A DNA stretch of 64,000 nt from Corynebacterium kroppenstedtii (lineage in GTDB: Bacteria; Actinomycetota; Actinomycetes; Mycobacteriales; Mycobacteriaceae), in NCBI RefSeq assembly GCF_016894245.1, contig NZ_CP069792.1, forward strand, positions 62,001 to 126,000, written 5' to 3'. Position 1 is the first letter of the stretch; each line of letters starts with the position of its first letter. The notes under the pieces were generated by a model that saw nothing but the letters and a program-made list of their open reading frames with translations, was not told the origin of the DNA and ran no database searches. A program made the translations under genes and the position numbers. This document shows, piece by piece, positions 8,413-63,520 of the stretch.

Positions 8413-9588
8413 TTACTTGCCAGCGCCCTTAGCAAGGCGACGCGCAATGATTTCCTTCATGATTTCGTTCGGACCACCGTAGATTGGCTGAACACGCGTA
8501 TCCAGGTAATGGGTAGCGATCGGGTATTCCATCATGAATCCATAGCCACCATGCAATTGCAGCGCATTATTAACCACTTCTACCTGCAGATCCGTGGTCC
8601 ACCACTTGGCCATCGCCGCTGTTGTTTCATCAAGCTCGCCCTTGACTTTTGCTTCAATGCAGGCATCGACGAATGACTGAGCAGCTTGAATCTTGGTAGC
8701 CATCTCAGCCAACATCCACCCGTAGGCCTGGTGGTCAACCAGTCGTTTGCCGAACGTCTTACGATCTTGGCTGTGCTGATAAACGAGGTCGAAAGCGCGG
8801 CGCGAGGTCGCTACAGAGCCAACGGCAATCGAAAGCCGCTCTTGCGCCAAGTTGTGCCTGAGGTAACCAAACCCGGCACCTTCTTCACCGAGGAGGTTCT
8901 CAGCCGGAACAGTGACGTTTTCAAAGGACAACTCCGCAGTGTCCTGGGCTTTAAGTCCGACTTTCTTCAGTGGGCCCGTCTTGGTGTACCCCTCCATACC
9001 GTCCTCAACAATGAGGAGCGAAACACCGGCTCGGCCCTTTTCAGGGTCAGTAACGGCCACGATAATTGTGAAATCTGCTTGGACGCCATTGGAGATAAAT
9101 GTCTTGGCACCATTCACGATGTAGTTACCGTCGGCGTCTTTCTTAGCAAGCGTGCGGATCCCTGCCAGGTCGGCTCCGGCGCCCGGCTCGGTCATAGCGA
9201 TAGCCGCGATCTTCTCACCAGCACAGAGTGGACGCAGGAAGCGCTCTTTTTGTTCCTCATTGGCAAAGCGCTCGAGGTAGGGAACAACCAAGTCATTGAT
9301 CGTCTGCACAGAGACAAGGACTGAACCGCAATCAGACTGAGCGAGCTCTTCCGAGAGGATAGCGTTAAAACGCCAGTCGTCCATGCCTCCACCGCCGAAT
9401 TTTTCGTCGGCAGTAATTCCTAAAAGACCGATCTCACCGGCCTTTTTGTACATGTCGCGATCGCAATAGCCCTGTTCATGCCACTGGCCGACATGAGGAG
9501 TGATCTCCTTTGCGACGAAATCGCGGGCGGTTTCACGAAACATCTTGTGCTCGTCATCGAAAATCGTGCGGGGTAAGAAGTTCTTCAT
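8413..9588 (-). CDS. Acyl-CoA dehydrogenase
   Basis: This FAD enzyme introduces the alpha-beta double bond into an acyl-CoA. Family signatures AMTEPGAGADLAG (FAD/substrate) and the C-terminal QLHGGYGFMMEYP and IYGGPNEIMKEII are present; length 391 is normal. In the final motif the glutamate of short- and medium-chain enzymes (YEGT) is replaced by glycine (YGGP). A glutamate in NLAQERLSIA sits where isovaleryl-CoA and long-chain enzymes carry the catalytic base (LDLERL in human IVD), so an IVD/LCAD-type active site is inferred. AAGGAG lies 11 bases before the ATG. The following gene is a crotonase, likely co-transcribed. Confidence 0.93.
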   Translation of the reverse strand: MKNFLPRTIFDDEHKMFRETARDFVAKEITPHVGQWHEQGYCDRDMYKKAGEIGLLGITADEKFGGGGMDDWRFNAILSEELAQSDCGSVLVSVQTINDLVVPYLERFANEEQKERFLRPLCAGEKIAAIAMTEPGAGADLAGIRTLAKKDADGNYIVNGAKTFISNGVQADFTIIVAVTDPEKGRAGVSLLIVEDGMEGYTKTGPLKKVGLKAQDTAELSFENVTVPAENLLGEEGAGFGYLRHNLAQERLSIAVGSVATSRRAFDLVYQHSQDRKTFGKRLVDHQAYGWMLAEMATKIQAAQSFVDACIEAKVKGELDETTAAMAKWWTTDLQVEVVNNALQLHGGYGFMMEYPIATHYLDTRVQPIYGGPNEIMKEIIARRLAKGAGK

Positions 9589-9764
9589 GGGATATGCGCT
9601 CCTTATCTGTTCTTATTGTGATTAGCAGCAGTTTTCGAGGTCTGAAGGTGACCGCGACGTGAACACTACTTTAAGTGGTAGGTCATGGTTTATATGCGAT
9701 AGTAACCCATGTCACAGCTTGACGAGGCGTATTTTTCAATCATGACATAGCGAGACACGAGGGG

Positions 9765-9785
9765 CGGGGGTAAAAATTACCCCCG
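9765..9785. promoter_or_regulatory. 21-bp palindrome upstream of the acyl-CoA dehydrogenase
   Basis: CGGGGGTAA-N3-TTACCCCCG is a perfect 9-bp inverted repeat around AAA, about 180 bases before the acyl-CoA dehydrogenase start. It could be an operator for that gene; the regulator is unknown. Confidence 0.4.
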
Positions 9786-9855
9786 GTCTACATCGGTCAA
9801 AATCCCATTGACCAGGAGATTTCAATTATTGATACAAATAAGTTGCTTAAATCAT

Positions 9856-9886
9856 TGACGGATTGCTTTAGGTAAGGCTAAATTGA
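9856..9886 (+). promoter_or_regulatory. Promoter overlapped by a DtxR-type iron box
   Basis: TTGACG (9856-9861) and TAAATT (9879-9884) are 17 bases apart on the + strand. A 19-bp sequence at 9868-9886 (TTAGGTAAGGCTAAATTGA) matches the known DtxR consensus TWAGGTWAGSCTWACCTWA at 16 of 19 positions and covers the -10. From DtxR biology, transcription should be off with iron and on without it. Confidence 0.65.
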
Positions 9887-9890
9887 AGGT

Positions 9891-10174
9891 CATACCGCAG
9901 CGGGATGTTCGAGAACGCTCTACCACCCGGGGACATCAGGGGTTCCCTAGGTAGGCGGAGCATCTCAGAGTGGTGCACAGTGATGAAAATCGATACTGGT
10001 TGTGCTGGTTCGATCGGCAAGGGTCATTCCTCTTCTCCCCTTCCTGATCTGCCTTCCCTCAGCGCTCGTCACCTCCTCCAGGCGCCGAGGACACCAGCAC
10101 TGTCGTCGCCAATATCGACCTCCGGAATAGAAACGGCACTGTGATGGCCTCGTCAACCATCACAGTGCCGTTTC
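9891..10174 (+). ncRNA. Candidate iron-regulated small RNA
   Basis: A transcript of about 280 nt is predicted from the DtxR-box promoter to the perfect 18-bp hairpin at 10130-10174. No reading frame inside looks like a conserved protein: the longest (9905-10144, 79 codons) ends inside the hairpin and has no ribosome site, and a 25-codon GTG frame at 9973-10047 with GGAG upstream is the only other candidate. The 3' half is rich in C and U and contains CACCTCCTCC (10070-10079), identical in its first 8 bases to the anti-Shine-Dalgarno of 16S rRNA, so it could pair with ribosome-binding sites. Iron-sparing sRNAs such as FsrA and MrsI are functional analogies only. Confidence 0.5.
10130..10174. 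terminator. Perfect 18-bp hairpin, probably a bidirectional terminator
   Basis: GAAACGGCACTGTGATGG (10130-10147) is fully complementary to 10157-10174, with a 9-nt loop. It separates the candidate sRNA from the convergent nicotinamidase gene. The T-run is short (GTTTC within the stem) in both directions. Confidence 0.75.
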
Positions 10175-10192
10175 ACGTATCAGAATCAGTAA

Positions 10193-10843
10193 CTAGCTCA
10201 CCGCTGCACCTGCATGTTTCATTTCTTGCAGGGCCTTCGCGCTGGAATCCGGGGCAACACCGGCGCATAAATCCGGGAGGAGAGTAACGGTGAACCCCTC
10301 CGCGATTCCATCGAGCACCGTCGCCTTCACACAGAAATCTGTCGCAATTCCGCAGACGTCGATAAACTCGATCCCCTGCTTGCGCAACCAGGGGCCTAGT
10401 CTCTCTGGCTGCCCACCGCCTGAGGCCTCATCGGTTCCTTCAAGATAGCCCTCAAAACCGCTATAGGCAGCTTCATATTCGCCCTTCAGGAACCAATAGT
10501 CGACAGATGAGACGTCGAGATTCGGGTGCGAATCGGCTCCTGGAGTGCCGACTTTGCAGTGGACGGGCCATGTCTCGACGAAATCAGGTTCCACACCTGG
10601 CGGTGCAAAGTGTGAGCCGGGGTCGATGTGCCAGTCCTTCGTTCCCACAATGAAGTCATACTTGGCCGTAATATCCGGCCGCCGGACATAATCAGAGATT
10701 CCCGTCGCCACTGTGTCACCACCTTCGCAGCCCAGTGCACCACCAGGGCAGAAATCATTCTGAACGTCAACAATGACTAAGCATCGGTGAGTTGGTCCAG
10801 CGTCCGCTTCGTGTGTGTGAGAGGAACTATTTATGTCGCGCAT
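10193..10843 (-). CDS. pncA: Nicotinamidase (isochorismatase-like hydrolase)
   Basis: The enzyme hydrolyses nicotinamide to nicotinate and ammonia for NAD salvage. The PncA triad is visible: Asp in LVIVDVQNDFCPGGAL, Lys in YWFLKGEYEAAYSGFEG and Cys in GIATDFCVKATVLDG. The metal-binding region reads TKDWHIDPGSHF and the substrate region HCKVGTPGA. Between the lysine and the cysteine is the usual extra segment ending in LRKQGI. The ATG at 10843 starts just after the glyA stop, suggesting translational coupling; an in-frame TTG at 10861 would overlap glyA by 16 bases. Isochorismatase was considered, but the motifs favour PncA. Confidence 0.9.
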   Translation of the reverse strand: MRDINSSSHTHEADAGPTHRCLVIVDVQNDFCPGGALGCEGGDTVATGISDYVRRPDITAKYDFIVGTKDWHIDPGSHFAPPGVEPDFVETWPVHCKVGTPGADSHPNLDVSSVDYWFLKGEYEAAYSGFEGYLEGTDEASGGGQPERLGPWLRKQGIEFIDVCGIATDFCVKATVLDGIAEGFTVTLLPDLCAGVAPDSSAKALQEMKHAGAAVS

Positions 10844-10845
10844 GA

Positions 10846-12192
10846 TTACATCAATGTCCAATCTTCCAGACCGTCATAGAGGGGGAATTGTTTAGCTAGG
10901 GATTCAACCCGCTGACGTAAGTCATCTCGAACGTCATCGGACTTTCCTTGATGGCCACTGATCAGCGTCTCCGCAATAATGTCGGCGACTTCCCCAAATG
11001 CTTCTTGATCAAATCCGCGGGTCGCCAGCGCCGACGTTCCGATTCTGAGTCCAGAGGTGACCATGGGTGGTCGCGGATCAAACGGCACCGCATTGCGGTT
11101 CACCGTGATTCCTACATCATGGAGCGCATCCTCAGCTTCCTGACCATTTAACGACGAATGACGCAAGTCAACGAGGACGAGGTGAACGTCGGTACCACCG
11201 GTGAGGACATCGATCCCCGCCTCCCCGGCATCGTCTTGGGTCAGGCGATTGGCCAAAATACGCGCTCCGGCGACGGTTCGACGCTGACGATCCCGGAATT
11301 CCTCTGATCCCGCGATTTTCATCGCAACAGCTTTTCCTGCGATAGGGTGCATCAAGGGTCCACCTTGCTGACCTGGGAAAACAGCTGAGTTGATCTTCTT
11401 GAAAAGATCTAGATCATTCGTCAGGATCATCCCTGACCGAGGACCACCCAACGTCTTATGGATGGTCGTAGAGACGACATCCGCGTAAGGAACCGGTGAT
11501 GGGTGGAGACCAGCAGCTACCAGCCCTGCGAAGTGAGCCATATCCACCCACAATGTGGCACCCACTTCATCGGCGATCTCCCGGAATGCCGCGAAATCCT
11601 CATGACGTGGATAGGCGGACCACCCCGCAATAATGACGGACGGTTTTTCCTCCACGGCCTGCTGGCCAACCTTGTCCATGTCGATGGTCATGGTCGTGGG
11701 ATCTACTTCATAAGCGACCGCGTTATACAGCTTTCCCGAGAAATTGAGCTTCATTCCGTGGGTTAAATGGCCCCCATGTGCCAGGGAGAGGCCCAGAATC
11801 GTGTCTCCTGGCTTCGCGATGGCCATGAGCACTGCAGCATTCGCTTGAGCACCAGAATGAGGCTGCACATTGGCATATTTCGCGCCGAAGACCTTCTTGG
11901 CGCGGTCCCTCGCAAGGTCCTCGATGATGTCCACATTTTCGCAGCCACCGTAGTATCGACGCCCCGGATACCCCTCCGCATATTTGTTCGTCAGAACCGA
12001 ACCCTGGGCTTGAAGGACCGCTCTGGGAACGAAATTCTCACTCGCAATCATCTCGAGCGTGGTCCGTTGGCGGCTCAGTTCGCCGGCAATGGCGTCGGAA
12101 ACCTCGGGGTCGATCTGAGATAACGGCTGATTAAGGAGTTGATCAGGGGTATTAGCAGTAGACGGGGTCGTGCTTGATGAAGAATTACTCAT
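10846..12192 (-). CDS. glyA: Serine hydroxymethyltransferase
   Basis: This PLP enzyme converts serine and tetrahydrofolate to glycine and methylene-tetrahydrofolate and is the main source of one-carbon units. The PLP-lysine motif [14 protein letters not shown] is clear, as are [16 protein letters not shown] and [18 protein letters not shown] near the N-terminus. Length (448) is normal, with an N-terminal Ser/Thr-rich extension of about 20 residues. It is divergent from coaA, with about 110 bp between them containing a short inverted repeat CCCAT-N6-ATGGG (12235-12250), and sits directly upstream of pncA. The same glyA/coaA arrangement is found in other corynebacteria. Confidence 0.97.
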
Positions 12193-17831: not shown

Positions 17832-17941
17832 GCCGACGTTGCTGGCTTTGAATCCACCATCTCAGTGGTACCATGCACTGCGTTATACGAATCGAAGCAT
17901 TTTATCTTCATAGACCGCAACGTTTGAGAGGCTGAGTAAAT

Positions 17942-22131: not shown

Positions 22132-22668
22132 ATGCACAAACGACTTCAAGGCGTCGCCCTCGCCGCGCTACTCGCAGCGCTATCTCTTTCGGCTTGCACC
22201 GACAATGGCGGAAACGACACAAAGTCATCTTCCGTACCGACGGCGACATTAACCAGCACGATATCTTCCTCGTCCAGCACCACGTCGTCCGAACCAACGC
22301 AAACCGAAACTACTGCCGCTAATCCGTCAACTGAACCAAGAGAGCAACCCGCCGTCACACAAGGTCAGACTCAATCTGATGGCGTCATTGGCTACACCGG
22401 AGCACCAGGGTTTGATCGCCCACATCTTCTCAACAAGACAATTAGCAGCTGCGGAAATCCCCAACTACACGAAACCGGAACCACATTTTTCACTGACGGA
22501 ACCTCGGGATGGACGCAGCACTGTGCCACCCAAATGGCAAACCAGCGGCCCATAACCACCCAACCACCGCAGGTTGGCCCAAGCTCTGGAGAGATCCAAA
22601 GCTGGTGGATGGACTGTATCTCATCCCACGATGAACAGTACTGCCGAGACACCGACCCCTACCACTAA
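22132..22668 (+). CDS. Small secreted lipoprotein, Ser/Thr-rich
   Basis: The signal peptide MHKRLQGVALAALLAALSLSAC ends in the lipobox LSAC. About 55 residues of Ser/Thr-rich linker follow, then a C-terminal domain of about 90 residues with four cysteines (SSCGNPQ, TQHCATQ, MDCISS, YCRDT) that could form two disulfides. The first cysteine pair resembles the CG...HC pair of the lipoprotein at 20188. The ATG at 22132 is chosen for its AAAGGA ribosome site and because the signal peptide begins there; the frame extends 10 codons upstream. It is followed after 25 bp by the Ltp-repeat membrane protein gene, probably in one operon. Function is unknown. Confidence 0.8.
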   Translation: MHKRLQGVALAALLAALSLSACTDNGGNDTKSSSVPTATLTSTISSSSSTTSSEPTQTETTAANPSTEPREQPAVTQGQTQSDGVIGYTGAPGFDRPHLLNKTISSCGNPQLHETGTTFFTDGTSGWTQHCATQMANQRPITTQPPQVGPSSGEIQSWWMDCISSHDEQYCRDTDPYH

Positions 22669-37616: not shown

Positions 37617-37696
37617 CACGCCTGCAGGGTTGATCAGATTTTCCACTCTGACTGCCAACAATCGTGATCACCGTGGTCAACACAGAAAGGCATACC

Positions 37697-38665
37697 GTGA
37701 ATTCACACTGGACGGAAAACCAGAAAAACCTCATGCTCTTCTCTGGGCGTGCCCACCCCGCTCTGGGAGAGCAAGTCGCCAAAGAACTAGGTATCGAGCT
37801 CACCCCCACCACCGCCCGCGACTTCGCCAATGGCGAGATCTTCGTTCGCTTCGAGGAATCCGTCCGCGGTTGCGATGCTTTCGTCTTGCAGTCCCACCCG
37901 CAGCCGCTGAACAAGTGGCTGATGGAGCAGCTCATCATGATCGATGCATTGAAGCGTGGATCTGCAAAACGCATCACAGCAATTCTCCCCTTCTACCCCT
38001 ATGCCCGCCAAGATAAGAAGCACCGTGGCCGCGAGCCAATTTCTGCTCGCCTGGTCGCAGACCTCTTGAAGTCTGCCGGGGCAGATCGCATTGTGTCTGT
38101 TGACCTCCACACAGACCAGATTCAGGGTTTCTTCGACGGGCCTGTAGATCACATGCACGCCATGCCGATCCTCACGGACTACGTGAAATCCAACTACGAC
38201 ACATCGAACATCGTTGTCGTGTCCCCCGACGCCGGGCGCGTCAAGGTAGCCGAAAAGTGGGCCCAGGAGTTGGGTAACGCACCTCTAGCCTTCGTCCACA
38301 AAACCCGCGATATTGACGTCGCGAACAAGATTACGTCCAACCGTGTTGTCGGTGACGTGTCCGGACGGACCTGTGTGCTGCTCGATGACATGATCGATAC
38401 TGGTGGAACCATTGCAGGCGCTGTCAAGGTGCTTCGTGAGGCGGGGGCGAATGACGTGATTATCGCCACGACTCACGGTGTATTCTCCGATCCAGCCCGC
38501 GAGCGGCTGTCCGAATGTGGTGCGCGCGAAGTGATTACCACCGATACGCTGCCGCAAAATACAGATCACTGGGACAACCTCACTGTTCTGTCGATTGCCC
38601 CACTGCTGGCGAAGACCATCCACGAGATCTTCGAAAACGGATCCGTCACCAACCTATTCGAGTAA
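37697..38665 (+). CDS. prs: Ribose-phosphate pyrophosphokinase
   Basis: The enzyme makes PRPP from ribose-5-phosphate and ATP for purine, pyrimidine, His, Trp and NAD synthesis, and in actinobacteria also for decaprenyl-phosphoryl arabinose. Family motifs are LFSGRAHPALGEQVA, RDFANGEIFVRFEESVRG, PYARQDKKHRGREPISA, SVDLHTDQIQGFF and the PRPP-binding loop CVLLDDMIDTGGTIAGA. GTG 37697 is the start because GAAAGG lies 7 bases upstream and the family alignment begins there; the frame is open 11 codons more. A strong hairpin follows. Confidence 0.96.
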   Translation: MNSHWTENQKNLMLFSGRAHPALGEQVAKELGIELTPTTARDFANGEIFVRFEESVRGCDAFVLQSHPQPLNKWLMEQLIMIDALKRGSAKRITAILPFYPYARQDKKHRGREPISARLVADLLKSAGADRIVSVDLHTDQIQGFFDGPVDHMHAMPILTDYVKSNYDTSNIVVVSPDAGRVKVAEKWAQELGNAPLAFVHKTRDIDVANKITSNRVVGDVSGRTCVLLDDMIDTGGTIAGAVKVLREAGANDVIIATTHGVFSDPARERLSECGAREVITTDTLPQNTDHWDNLTVLSIAPLLAKTIHEIFENGSVTNLFE

Positions 38666-50583: not shown

Positions 50584-50609
50584 TTTGTGTGAGTGAGTAA
50601 CATAGAGAT

Positions 50610-50775
50610 CGTTCTCAGGGCGGGGTGGAATTCCCCACCGGCGGTAAGCCCCTTCTGACAGAGATGAAGAGGCAAGCCCGCGAGCGCTCTCGTGTGCACA
50701 TCCATGCACATGAGGGGTCCAGCAGATCCGGTGCAATTCCGGAGCCGACGGTCACAGTCCGGATGGAAGAGAATG
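50610..50775 (+). promoter_or_regulatory. FMN riboswitch (RFN element)
   Basis: All conserved blocks of the RFN aptamer are present in order: CAGGGCGGGGTG, ATTCCCCACCGGCGGTAA, AGCCCGCGAGCG, AGATCCGGTGCAATTCCGG and AGCCGACGGTCACAGTCCGG. P1 is formed by 50610-50616 with 50769-50775. Downstream, GTTCT (50778-50782) can pair with AGAAC (50817-50821), which covers the ribosome site GGAG, or with the 3' strand of P1 (AGAA). FMN binding would stabilise P1, free GTTCT and hide the ribosome site: translational repression. The P1 and alternative-pairing model is my inference. Confidence 0.95.
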
Positions 50776-50824
50776 TAGTTCTGTATGCCTCTGAGGATCA
50801 CGTCGTCTTGCTACGGAGAACATC

Positions 50825-63403: not shown

Positions 63404-63467
63404 GTCTTTCTCTCCGGCTCAGAATGGTGGAGCCTGCCCAAAGTCACGATCTGATAACAACTTCGAC

Positions 63468-63520
63468 AGAGTAGCAACTAGATGGGGGTGAGGCAACGGC
63501 TCCGTAACCAAAAGTTGCTA
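63468..63520 (-). promoter_or_regulatory. rpfB promoter and flanking inverted repeat
   Basis: On the minus strand TTGCCT (63491-63496) and TACTCT (63468-63473) are separated by 17 bases, with transcription starting near 63460. TAGCAACT (63472-63479) and AGTTGCTA (63513-63520) form an 8-bp inverted repeat enclosing the -35. The run GGGGG in between resembles RamA-type C/G-rich sites known from C. glutamicum, which is a weak analogy. Confidence 0.55.

What the first reader, a model, noticed from the sequence alone, without database searches (positions are those of the whole stretch)
9856..10174. Candidate iron-regulated small RNA with an anti-Shine-Dalgarno stretch
A + strand promoter (TTGACG-N17-TAAATT) is overlapped by a 16/19 match to the DtxR consensus. 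About 280 nt later is a perfect 18-bp hairpin. No conserved protein is encoded between. The transcript contains CACCTCCTCC (10070-10079) and other CU-rich runs, able to pair with ribosome-binding sites. Together this is the layout of an iron-sparing sRNA. I know of no description of such an RNA at this locus.
Basis: partly seen in the sequence, partly recalled or inferred. Interest (0 to 1): 0.8.

Follow-up and report, generated by a model that had tools for sequence, protein, structure and literature searches.

The report
Candidate iron-repressed conserved small RNA
A stretch between two genes of a Corynebacterium looks like a gene for a roughly 285-base RNA, switched off by iron and shaped to show two sticky loops that could shut down other genes' messages, and its 284-base core is the same letter for letter in four related genomes.

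Summary
Very probably a real, independent, iron-repressed non-coding RNA gene. In four Corynebacterium kroppenstedtii-complex genomes 9893-10176 is identical at all 284 positions, the longest identical run in 61,845 aligned positions; aligned coding sequence is 85.0% and other aligned intergenic sequence 74.8% identical. Conservation starts at the promoter and stops at the hairpin. The DtxR box (9868-9886) matches 15/19, not 16/19; a matrix from 31 C. glutamicum sites gives it 19.2 bits, the next best site in 64 kb 9.4. The genome encodes a DtxR orthologue. No protein family fits. The predicted fold shows two 14-nt CU-rich loops, highly accessible. Full matches occur in 4 of 242 same-genus genomes. 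It is not 6C and resembles no CoRP-locus sequence tested. No AraC-type regulator was detected in the genome, so RipA, which spares iron in other corynebacteria, is probably missing. Best reading: a DtxR-repressed base-pairing sRNA working like staphylococcal IsrR and mycobacterial MrsI. Transcription, termination and targets are unproven; pairing with start sites was no better than generic.

The parts
9846..10176 (+). whole RNA gene: promoter, DtxR box, RNA of about 285 nt, 3' hairpin
   Evidence: only one variable position (9892) in four genomes; identical run 9893-10176
9823..9845 (.). conserved imperfect dyad CAATTATTGATACAAATAAGTTG just upstream of the -35; possible site of a further regulator
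   Evidence: read by eye; only 9845 varies in four genomes; function inferred
9855..9860 (+). -35 hexamer TTGACG
9868..9886 (.). DtxR operator TTAGGTAAGGCTAAATTGA, overlapping spacer and -10
   Evidence: 15/19; 19.16 bits, rank 4 against 31 C. glutamicum sites, next best in window 9.36
9879..9884 (+). -10 hexamer TAAATT
9891..9893 (+). expected transcription start
   Evidence: inferred from the -10 position; not mapped
9893..9975 (+). domain I: long imperfect hairpin
   Evidence: minimum-energy and centroid fold
9990..10118 (+). domain II: closing stem carrying two hairpins
   Evidence: minimum-energy and centroid fold
10024..10037 (+). loop 1, UCAUUCCUCUUCUC, CU-rich
   Evidence: mean unpaired probability 0.99, opening cost 0.04 kcal/mol
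10067..10080 (+). loop 2, CGUCACCUCCUCCA, with the anti-Shine-Dalgarno stretch 10070-10079
   Evidence: mean unpaired probability 0.92; the 10-mer ranks 7 of 277 for ease of opening
10130..10174 (.). perfect 18-bp hairpin, 9-nt loop; presumed end of the RNA, perhaps also of pncA on the other strand
   Evidence: no T-run, no terminator-like site in the scan
8413..9588 (-). neighbour: acyl-CoA dehydrogenase gene
   Evidence: Pfam PF00441/PF02770/PF02771
10193..10861 (-). neighbour: isochorismatase/nicotinamidase-family (pncA-like) gene
   Evidence: Pfam PF00857

Best explanation
It is a free-standing small RNA gene of the C. kroppenstedtii complex. With enough iron, Fe-DtxR sits on 9868-9886, over the -10 region, and blocks transcription. 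When iron is short, DtxR leaves and an RNA of about 285 nt is made, ending at the 18-bp hairpin. The RNA folds into two domains; the second shows two 14-nt CU-rich loops. One loop holds UCACCUCCUCC, which (from general knowledge) resembles the anti-Shine-Dalgarno end of 16S rRNA. The loops pair with G-rich ribosome-binding sites of chosen mRNAs, most likely of dispensable iron proteins, and block their translation. Shown by computation: gene anatomy, conservation, operator quality, presence of DtxR, predicted loop accessibility. Inferred: transcription, the iron response, pairing, and the nature of the targets.
For: 284 of 284 identical positions in four genomes; longest identical run of 61,845 aligned positions, next 186. 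Aligned coding sequence 85.0% identical (53,534 positions), other aligned intergenic 74.8% (7,650 positions); the FMN riboswitch in the same window 89.5%. The block begins at the promoter and ends two bases past the hairpin. DtxR box 19.16 bits against 9.36 for the runner-up, placed within the promoter like the mapped sites of DtxR-repressed genes in C. glutamicum (PMC1382209, passages). Full DtxR domain set, best PDB matches IdeR and DtxR. No protein: the 79-aa ORF has one database hit, of one member, and no Pfam domain. CU loops have mean unpaired probabilities of 0.99 and 0.92 and cost 0.04 and 0.58 kcal/mol to open; the median for all 10-mers is 7.37. No AraC-type HTH detected in the genome while C. 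glutamicum rings as control, so the known DtxR-RipA sparing arm seems absent.
Against: No transcript data. No T-run after the hairpin. Without the hairpin the + strand folds no better than shuffles (z -0.72), and the - strand folds better than the + strand. Zero variation means the fold cannot be tested by covariation. Loop 1 pairs with 48 start regions no better than shuffled loops (-7.17 against -7.33 +/- 0.46) and loop 2 only slightly better (-9.66 against -8.91 +/- 0.64); no iron-protein target was found. DtxR-core matches per genome are not clearly above the reversed-pattern control (G000 2 v 4, G013 4 v 7, G137 3 v 3, G176 3 v 2), and no site in G000 has 16 or more of 19 matches. Identity along the whole RNA is more than a base-pairing sRNA needs.
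Confidence: 0.58

Rival explanations
1. The RNA works mainly by binding a protein machine, most simply RNA polymerase, as 6S, Ms1 and CoRP RNAs do; the complex lacks the usual CoRP gene order and this RNA could fill that role, with DtxR tuning its level.
For: Identity over the whole length suits protein binding better than two seeds. [quoted passage not shown] in G013 the 5.9 kb downstream of that tRNA-Glu hold no second one. The CoRP authors propose one abundant RNA-polymerase-binding RNA per species.
Against: No similarity to seven sequences taken from the CoRP position in other genomes; no match to any Rfam family at the gathering score and nothing credible at E<=1; the predicted fold is two-domained without a single long rod; a strong DtxR box is not expected for a growth-phase RNA.
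Confidence: 0.15
2. It is a DtxR-controlled mRNA for a small protein (or a dual RNA), with the 79-aa ORF 9905-10144 or a shorter one inside.
For: An open frame of 79 codons spans most of the transcript; leaderless mRNAs are common in corynebacteria (20% of C. diphtheriae genes, PMC5784534, passages).
Against: Synonymous sites are as invariant as all others; one database hit only, one member, 54 aa; no Pfam domain; the frame ends inside the hairpin; no good ribosome-binding site seen by eye before 9905.
Confidence: 0.1
3. The block is on the - strand: a long conserved 3' region of pncA or a leader of the acyl-CoA dehydrogenase gene, and the + strand promoter is chance.
For: The - strand folds better (z -5.96 with, -2.08 without the hairpin); both neighbours are read on the - strand.
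Against: Between the block and the dehydrogenase gene identity in 100-base windows falls to 0.78-0.90, and inside pncA to 0.66-0.88; the block's edge sits at the + strand promoter; no - strand promoter-like site in 9590-10200.
Confidence: 0.08
4. The identity is not constraint but recent spread of the block between the species by homologous recombination.
For: Recombination probably occurs here: window and G013 are identical over 9101-9350 inside the dehydrogenase gene, while the others are not.
Against: The identical block fits the promoter and hairpin exactly, and both flanks diverge at once in all three comparisons.
Confidence: 0.07

Closest known systems
IsrR of staphylococci (PMC9410917; abstract and passages read)
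   Same: Free-standing, repressed when iron is plentiful; C-rich single-stranded regions, two of them in hairpin loops, modelled to meet Shine-Dalgarno sequences.
   Different: Repressor is Fur, not DtxR; sequence and genus differ; IsrR targets are tested, here none is known.
MrsI of mycobacteria (review PMC11188477, passages)
   Same: Same order of bacteria; a binding site for IdeR (the DtxR relative) near its start; loop-borne seed; iron-sparing targets.
   Different: MrsI is about 100 nt with one 7-nt apical loop; this RNA is about 285 nt with two 14-nt loops; no sequence comparison made.
RipA, AraC-type repressor of iron proteins (PMC13001254, passages)
   Same: Would occupy the same place: made only when DtxR lets go, then lowers iron enzymes.
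   Different: A protein acting on transcription; no AraC-type HTH detected in this genome.
6C RNA (RF01066)
   Same: Two neighbouring hairpins with C-rich loops (recalled description).
   Different: This genome has its own 6C RNA elsewhere (G000:C1:923064-923131); no match of the model here.
CoRP RNA of C. glutamicum (PMC11077062, sections 27-28)
   Same: Corynebacterial non-coding RNA of hundreds of bases, unknown until recently.
   Different: 516 nt, between tRNA genes, binds RNA polymerase; no similarity to sequences from the CoRP position of other genomes; the C. glutamicum sequence itself was not fetched.

Membership tests
Iron-sparing base-pairing sRNA (functional class: RyhB, FsrA, IsrR, MrsI) | transcribed under control of the iron regulator | tested here: inconclusive
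   strong DtxR box over the promoter and DtxR orthologue; expression not testable here
Iron-sparing base-pairing sRNA (functional class: RyhB, FsrA, IsrR, MrsI) | exposed seed able to pair with ribosome-binding sites | tested here: inconclusive
   seed accessible in prediction; pairing not better than generic for 48 start regions
Iron-sparing base-pairing sRNA (functional class: RyhB, FsrA, IsrR, MrsI) | lowers expression of iron-containing proteins | not testable with these tools
   needs a deletion strain and RNA or protein measurement
MrsI | about 100 nt with a 7-nt apical seed loop | tested here: not met
   about 285 nt by anatomy, two 14-nt loops predicted
MrsI | sequence homology to MrsI | not tested
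   MrsI sequence not fetched
6C RNA (RF01066) | covariance model match | tested here: not met
   no match in the window at the gathering score nor in 9590-10250 at E<=1; the genome's 6C lies elsewhere
CoRP RNA | place between tRNA-Glu genes | tested here: not met
   lies between dehydrogenase and pncA-like genes
CoRP RNA | sequence similarity to CoRP | tested here: not met
   nhmmer with the RNA as query against 12 loci and with a profile of 7 inter-tRNA-Glu sequences: no hit; these 7 are CoRP by position only
CoRP / Ms1 / 6S (RNA-polymerase-binding RNAs) | binds RNA polymerase | not testable with these tools
   needs co-immunoprecipitation
DtxR operator | matrix score in the range of verified C. 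glutamicum sites | tested here: met
   19.16 bits, rank 4 against 31 leave-one-out scores of 5.85-21.47

The most novel reading that the evidence does not exclude
In the C. kroppenstedtii complex an RNA has taken over the job that the protein RipA does elsewhere in the genus: DtxR controls an ultraconserved, clade-only sRNA which spares iron by blocking translation, in place of a transcriptional repressor. One lineage swapped a protein arm of the iron regulon for an RNA arm, using a new RNA family with no relative found in sequence.
Probability: 0.3. Interest if true: 0.8.

Novelty: new member of a known kind. Interest (0 to 1): 0.62.

Why it matters
It would be a DtxR-controlled small RNA in Corynebacterium, of which my searches show no description (listings; DtxR papers PMC1382209, PMC13001254 and PMC5784534: passages only). 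It would extend iron sparing by RNA to a genus where a protein, RipA, is known to do it, and give a clean case for asking how a lineage exchanges a protein regulator for an RNA. The complete lack of substitutions over 284 nt, beside a riboswitch that varies at a tenth of its positions, also asks what holds every base in place.

Tried and rejected
Rfam at gathering score (3 matches, none here) and at E<=1 over 9590-10250 (two matches, a microRNA model on the hairpin's other strand and a mammalian ribozyme model on the other strand, both far below their cut-offs): nothing credible. 6C RNA: rejected, found elsewhere. CoRP: nine loci with the tRNA-Gln/Glu/Glu order were fetched; seven have a gap over 600 nt and were used, two (gaps of 225 and 178 nt) were left out of the profile; no similarity.

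Distant homologues: BLAST with the 341-bp interval gives 187 of 242 genomes with a match at E<=1 and a capped list; in the rows shown, everything outside the four complex genomes is a piece of at most 64 bases, the best being 29 bases in G148 at E=6.9e-4, taken as chance. 26 of these loci were fetched, and none of the 26 has both a DtxR box of 13 bits or more and a hairpin of 13 bp or more. Covariance models of the two domains: R1 5 of 242 and R2 4 of 242 genomes at E<=0.01; the fifth R1 hit (G201, E=0.0017) is about what 242 genomes give by chance and by eye lies in coding-like sequence. The models were scored with stricter filters and rest on four identical sequences, so remote relatives may be missed. 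Eight pncA-like loci of other corynebacteria hold no DtxR box of 13 bits or more; one (L061) has a hairpin right after pncA.

Target prediction on 48 crudely called genes of the window: not informative, and start sites were chosen partly by their Shine-Dalgarno score. Of the 13 distinct best-pairing genes, 9 were scanned; none shows an iron-protein domain. Genome-wide target prediction was not done.

An earlier figure of 58.9% for intergenic identity counted unaligned positions as different; one search gives 74.8% on aligned positions and is used here. Alignments used the wrong strand and were discarded; searches replaced them.

Full report
WHERE IT IS. The interval lies in the 604-base gap between an acyl-CoA dehydrogenase gene (8413-9588, - strand) and a nicotinamidase/isochorismatase-family gene (10193-10861, - strand). 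The genome (G000, one contig of 2,483,614 bases) is not named. Three genomes carry the same interval: G013 and G176, whose contig lengths equal those of C. parakroppenstedtii MC-26 and C. pseudokroppenstedtii MC-17X, and G137, whose length of 2,446,804 fits, from memory, the C. kroppenstedtii type strain. So this is the C. kroppenstedtii complex.

The promoter, box, hairpin and CU-rich stretch are there. Three details differ: the hexamers are 18 apart, the box matches 15 of 19, and the hairpin is not followed by a T-run. As a consensus match the promoter is unremarkable (1 found, 0.6 expected).

CONSERVATION. Aligning the window with the three other genomes gave 61,845 positions aligned in all; 83.9% are identical in all four. 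Aligned coding sequence is 85.0% identical (53,534 positions), aligned intergenic sequence outside this gene and the two tRNAs 74.8% (7,650 of 9,717 intergenic positions could be aligned; gene calls are crude). Positions 9893-10176 are identical without exception: 284 bases, the longest run. The next, 186, is the start of a gene that by eye is prs, and the next intergenic run is 109, at a tRNA. Between 9817 and 10180 only 9817, 9845, 9892 and 10177 vary. The edges coincide with the promoter and the hairpin. A riboswitch in the same window, FMN at 50607-50778, is 89.5% identical. Since every third position is as fixed as the others, a coding frame is not what is held; constraint on RNA or DNA is. 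Because nothing varies, however, the fold cannot be tested by covariation.

IRON CONTROL. From the 31 C. glutamicum operators whose genes changed in expression, listed by Brune et al. 2006 (PMC1382209, Table 1, passages), I built a matrix. The site at 9868-9886 scores 19.16 bits; leave-one-out scores of the 31 run from 5.85 to 21.47, and it would rank fourth. The second-best site in the 64-kb window scores 9.36. In another 255,711 bases of the four genomes, the only sites within 1.5 bits of it are its three orthologues. No mononucleotide shuffle of 9817-9892 reached it (0 of 5000) (all). Against this: in the whole genome no site has 16 or more consensus matches, and the number of core matches is not clearly above the reversed-pattern control (2 v 4 here; 4 v 7, 3 v 3, 3 v 2 in the others). 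Of the sites found, two recur in all four genomes: this one, and one at the start of a siderophore-type binding protein gene (Peripla_BP_2), which scores 15.18 bits. The DtxR orthologue has all three DtxR domains, best matches IdeR and DtxR in the PDB, and lies beside a gene that by eye encodes a sigma factor. In C. glutamicum, operators of the mapped DtxR-repressed genes lie within the promoter, as here.

STRUCTURE. The 286-nt + strand folds at -117.9 kcal/mol, z -4.21, but this is due to the 3' hairpin: without it z is -0.72. The - strand gives z -5.96 and -2.08. The + fold has domain I (9893-9975), a linker, domain II (9990-10118) with two hairpins, and the 3' hairpin. Both hairpins of domain II carry 14-nt loops, UCAUUCCUCUUCUC and CGUCACCUCCUCCA. 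Their mean unpaired probabilities are 0.99 and 0.92; the anti-SD 10-mer costs 0.34 kcal/mol to open, seventh cheapest of 277 (median 7.37).

HOW FAR IT REACHES. BLAST and two covariance models found it whole in 4 of 242 same-genus genomes (short or chance-level hits are told under tried and rejected), and BLAST in 2 of 61 genomes spanning 22 genera (that sample held only G000 and G013 of the four). It is not 6C, which sits elsewhere in this genome, and has no similarity to seven sequences from the CoRP position in other genomes (CoRP by position only). The tRNA order that marks CoRP is broken in the window's genome, where an integrase-like gene follows the tRNA-Glu and no tRNA follows for about 200 kb; in G013 no second tRNA-Glu lies in the 5.9 kb downstream. 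Whether CoRP sits elsewhere in these genomes was not tested.

MECHANISM. The anatomy is that of an iron-repressed RNA that shows CU-rich loops. IsrR of staphylococci works so with C-rich regions and Fur (PMC9410917, abstract and passages), and MrsI of mycobacteria with IdeR (PMC11188477, passages). In C. glutamicum and C. diphtheriae a sparing arm of DtxR is RipA, an AraC-type protein (PMC13001254, passages). A search for the AraC HTH family found none in this genome at E<=0.001 (18 candidates scored), with C. glutamicum positive as control; RipA itself was not searched, nor were the three other genomes. This makes an RNA substitute attractive, not proven. My test of pairing with 48 start regions of the window was weak: loop 1 -7.17 against -5.62 kcal/mol inside genes but -7.33 +/- 0.46 for shuffled loops; loop 2 -9.66 against -8.35 and -8.91 +/- 0.64. 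So the loops fit Shine-Dalgarno sequences in general, and no specific target is known. Identity along all 284 bases suggests further partners, a protein perhaps.

LITERATURE. Searches for kroppenstedtii with small RNA, DtxR with sRNA, Corynebacterium and iron, kroppenstedtii with DtxR, and DtxR with non-coding RNA and Corynebacterium listed no paper on a DtxR-controlled sRNA in this genus by title or abstract start. Passages of the C. diphtheriae DtxR transcriptome papers showed none. A corynebacterial sRNA database paper discusses sRNAs predicted to act on dtxR or beside it and does not mention kroppenstedtii (PMC8247434, passages). The library lacks most subscription papers, and supplements were not read.

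VERDICT. A real, iron-controlled small RNA gene is very likely; that it spares iron by blocking ribosome-binding sites is the best single reading at a little better than even odds.

Noticed in passing
G000 whole genome: No AraC-type HTH (PF12833) at E<=0.001 in the genome, while C. glutamicum rings as control; the regulator RipA is probably absent.
   Followed up: partly
L112:2234-2252 (also L120, L122, L126): DtxR-like box TTAGGTTAGCCTAG... at the start of a Peripla_BP_2 lipoprotein gene beside a PepSY membrane protein gene, found in all four complex genomes.
   Followed up: partly
L110:1970-3206: Integrase-like gene (by eye) directly after tRNA-Glu(CTC); the second tRNA-Glu and the CoRP-bearing gap seen in other corynebacteria are missing there.
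   Followed up: partly
window 37663-37848: 186 bases identical in all four genomes over the start of a prs-like gene, more than codon constraint would usually give.
   Followed up: no
window 22419-22493, 17843-17912, 63404-63477: Other intergenic runs of 70-75 bases identical in all four genomes; possible further RNA or regulatory elements.
   Followed up: no
window 9101-9350: Inside the acyl-CoA dehydrogenase gene window and G013 are identical while G137 and G176 differ, a sign of recent exchange.
   Followed up: no
window 50607-50778: FMN riboswitch (RF00050), 89.5% identical in four genomes; used as yardstick.
   Followed up: yes
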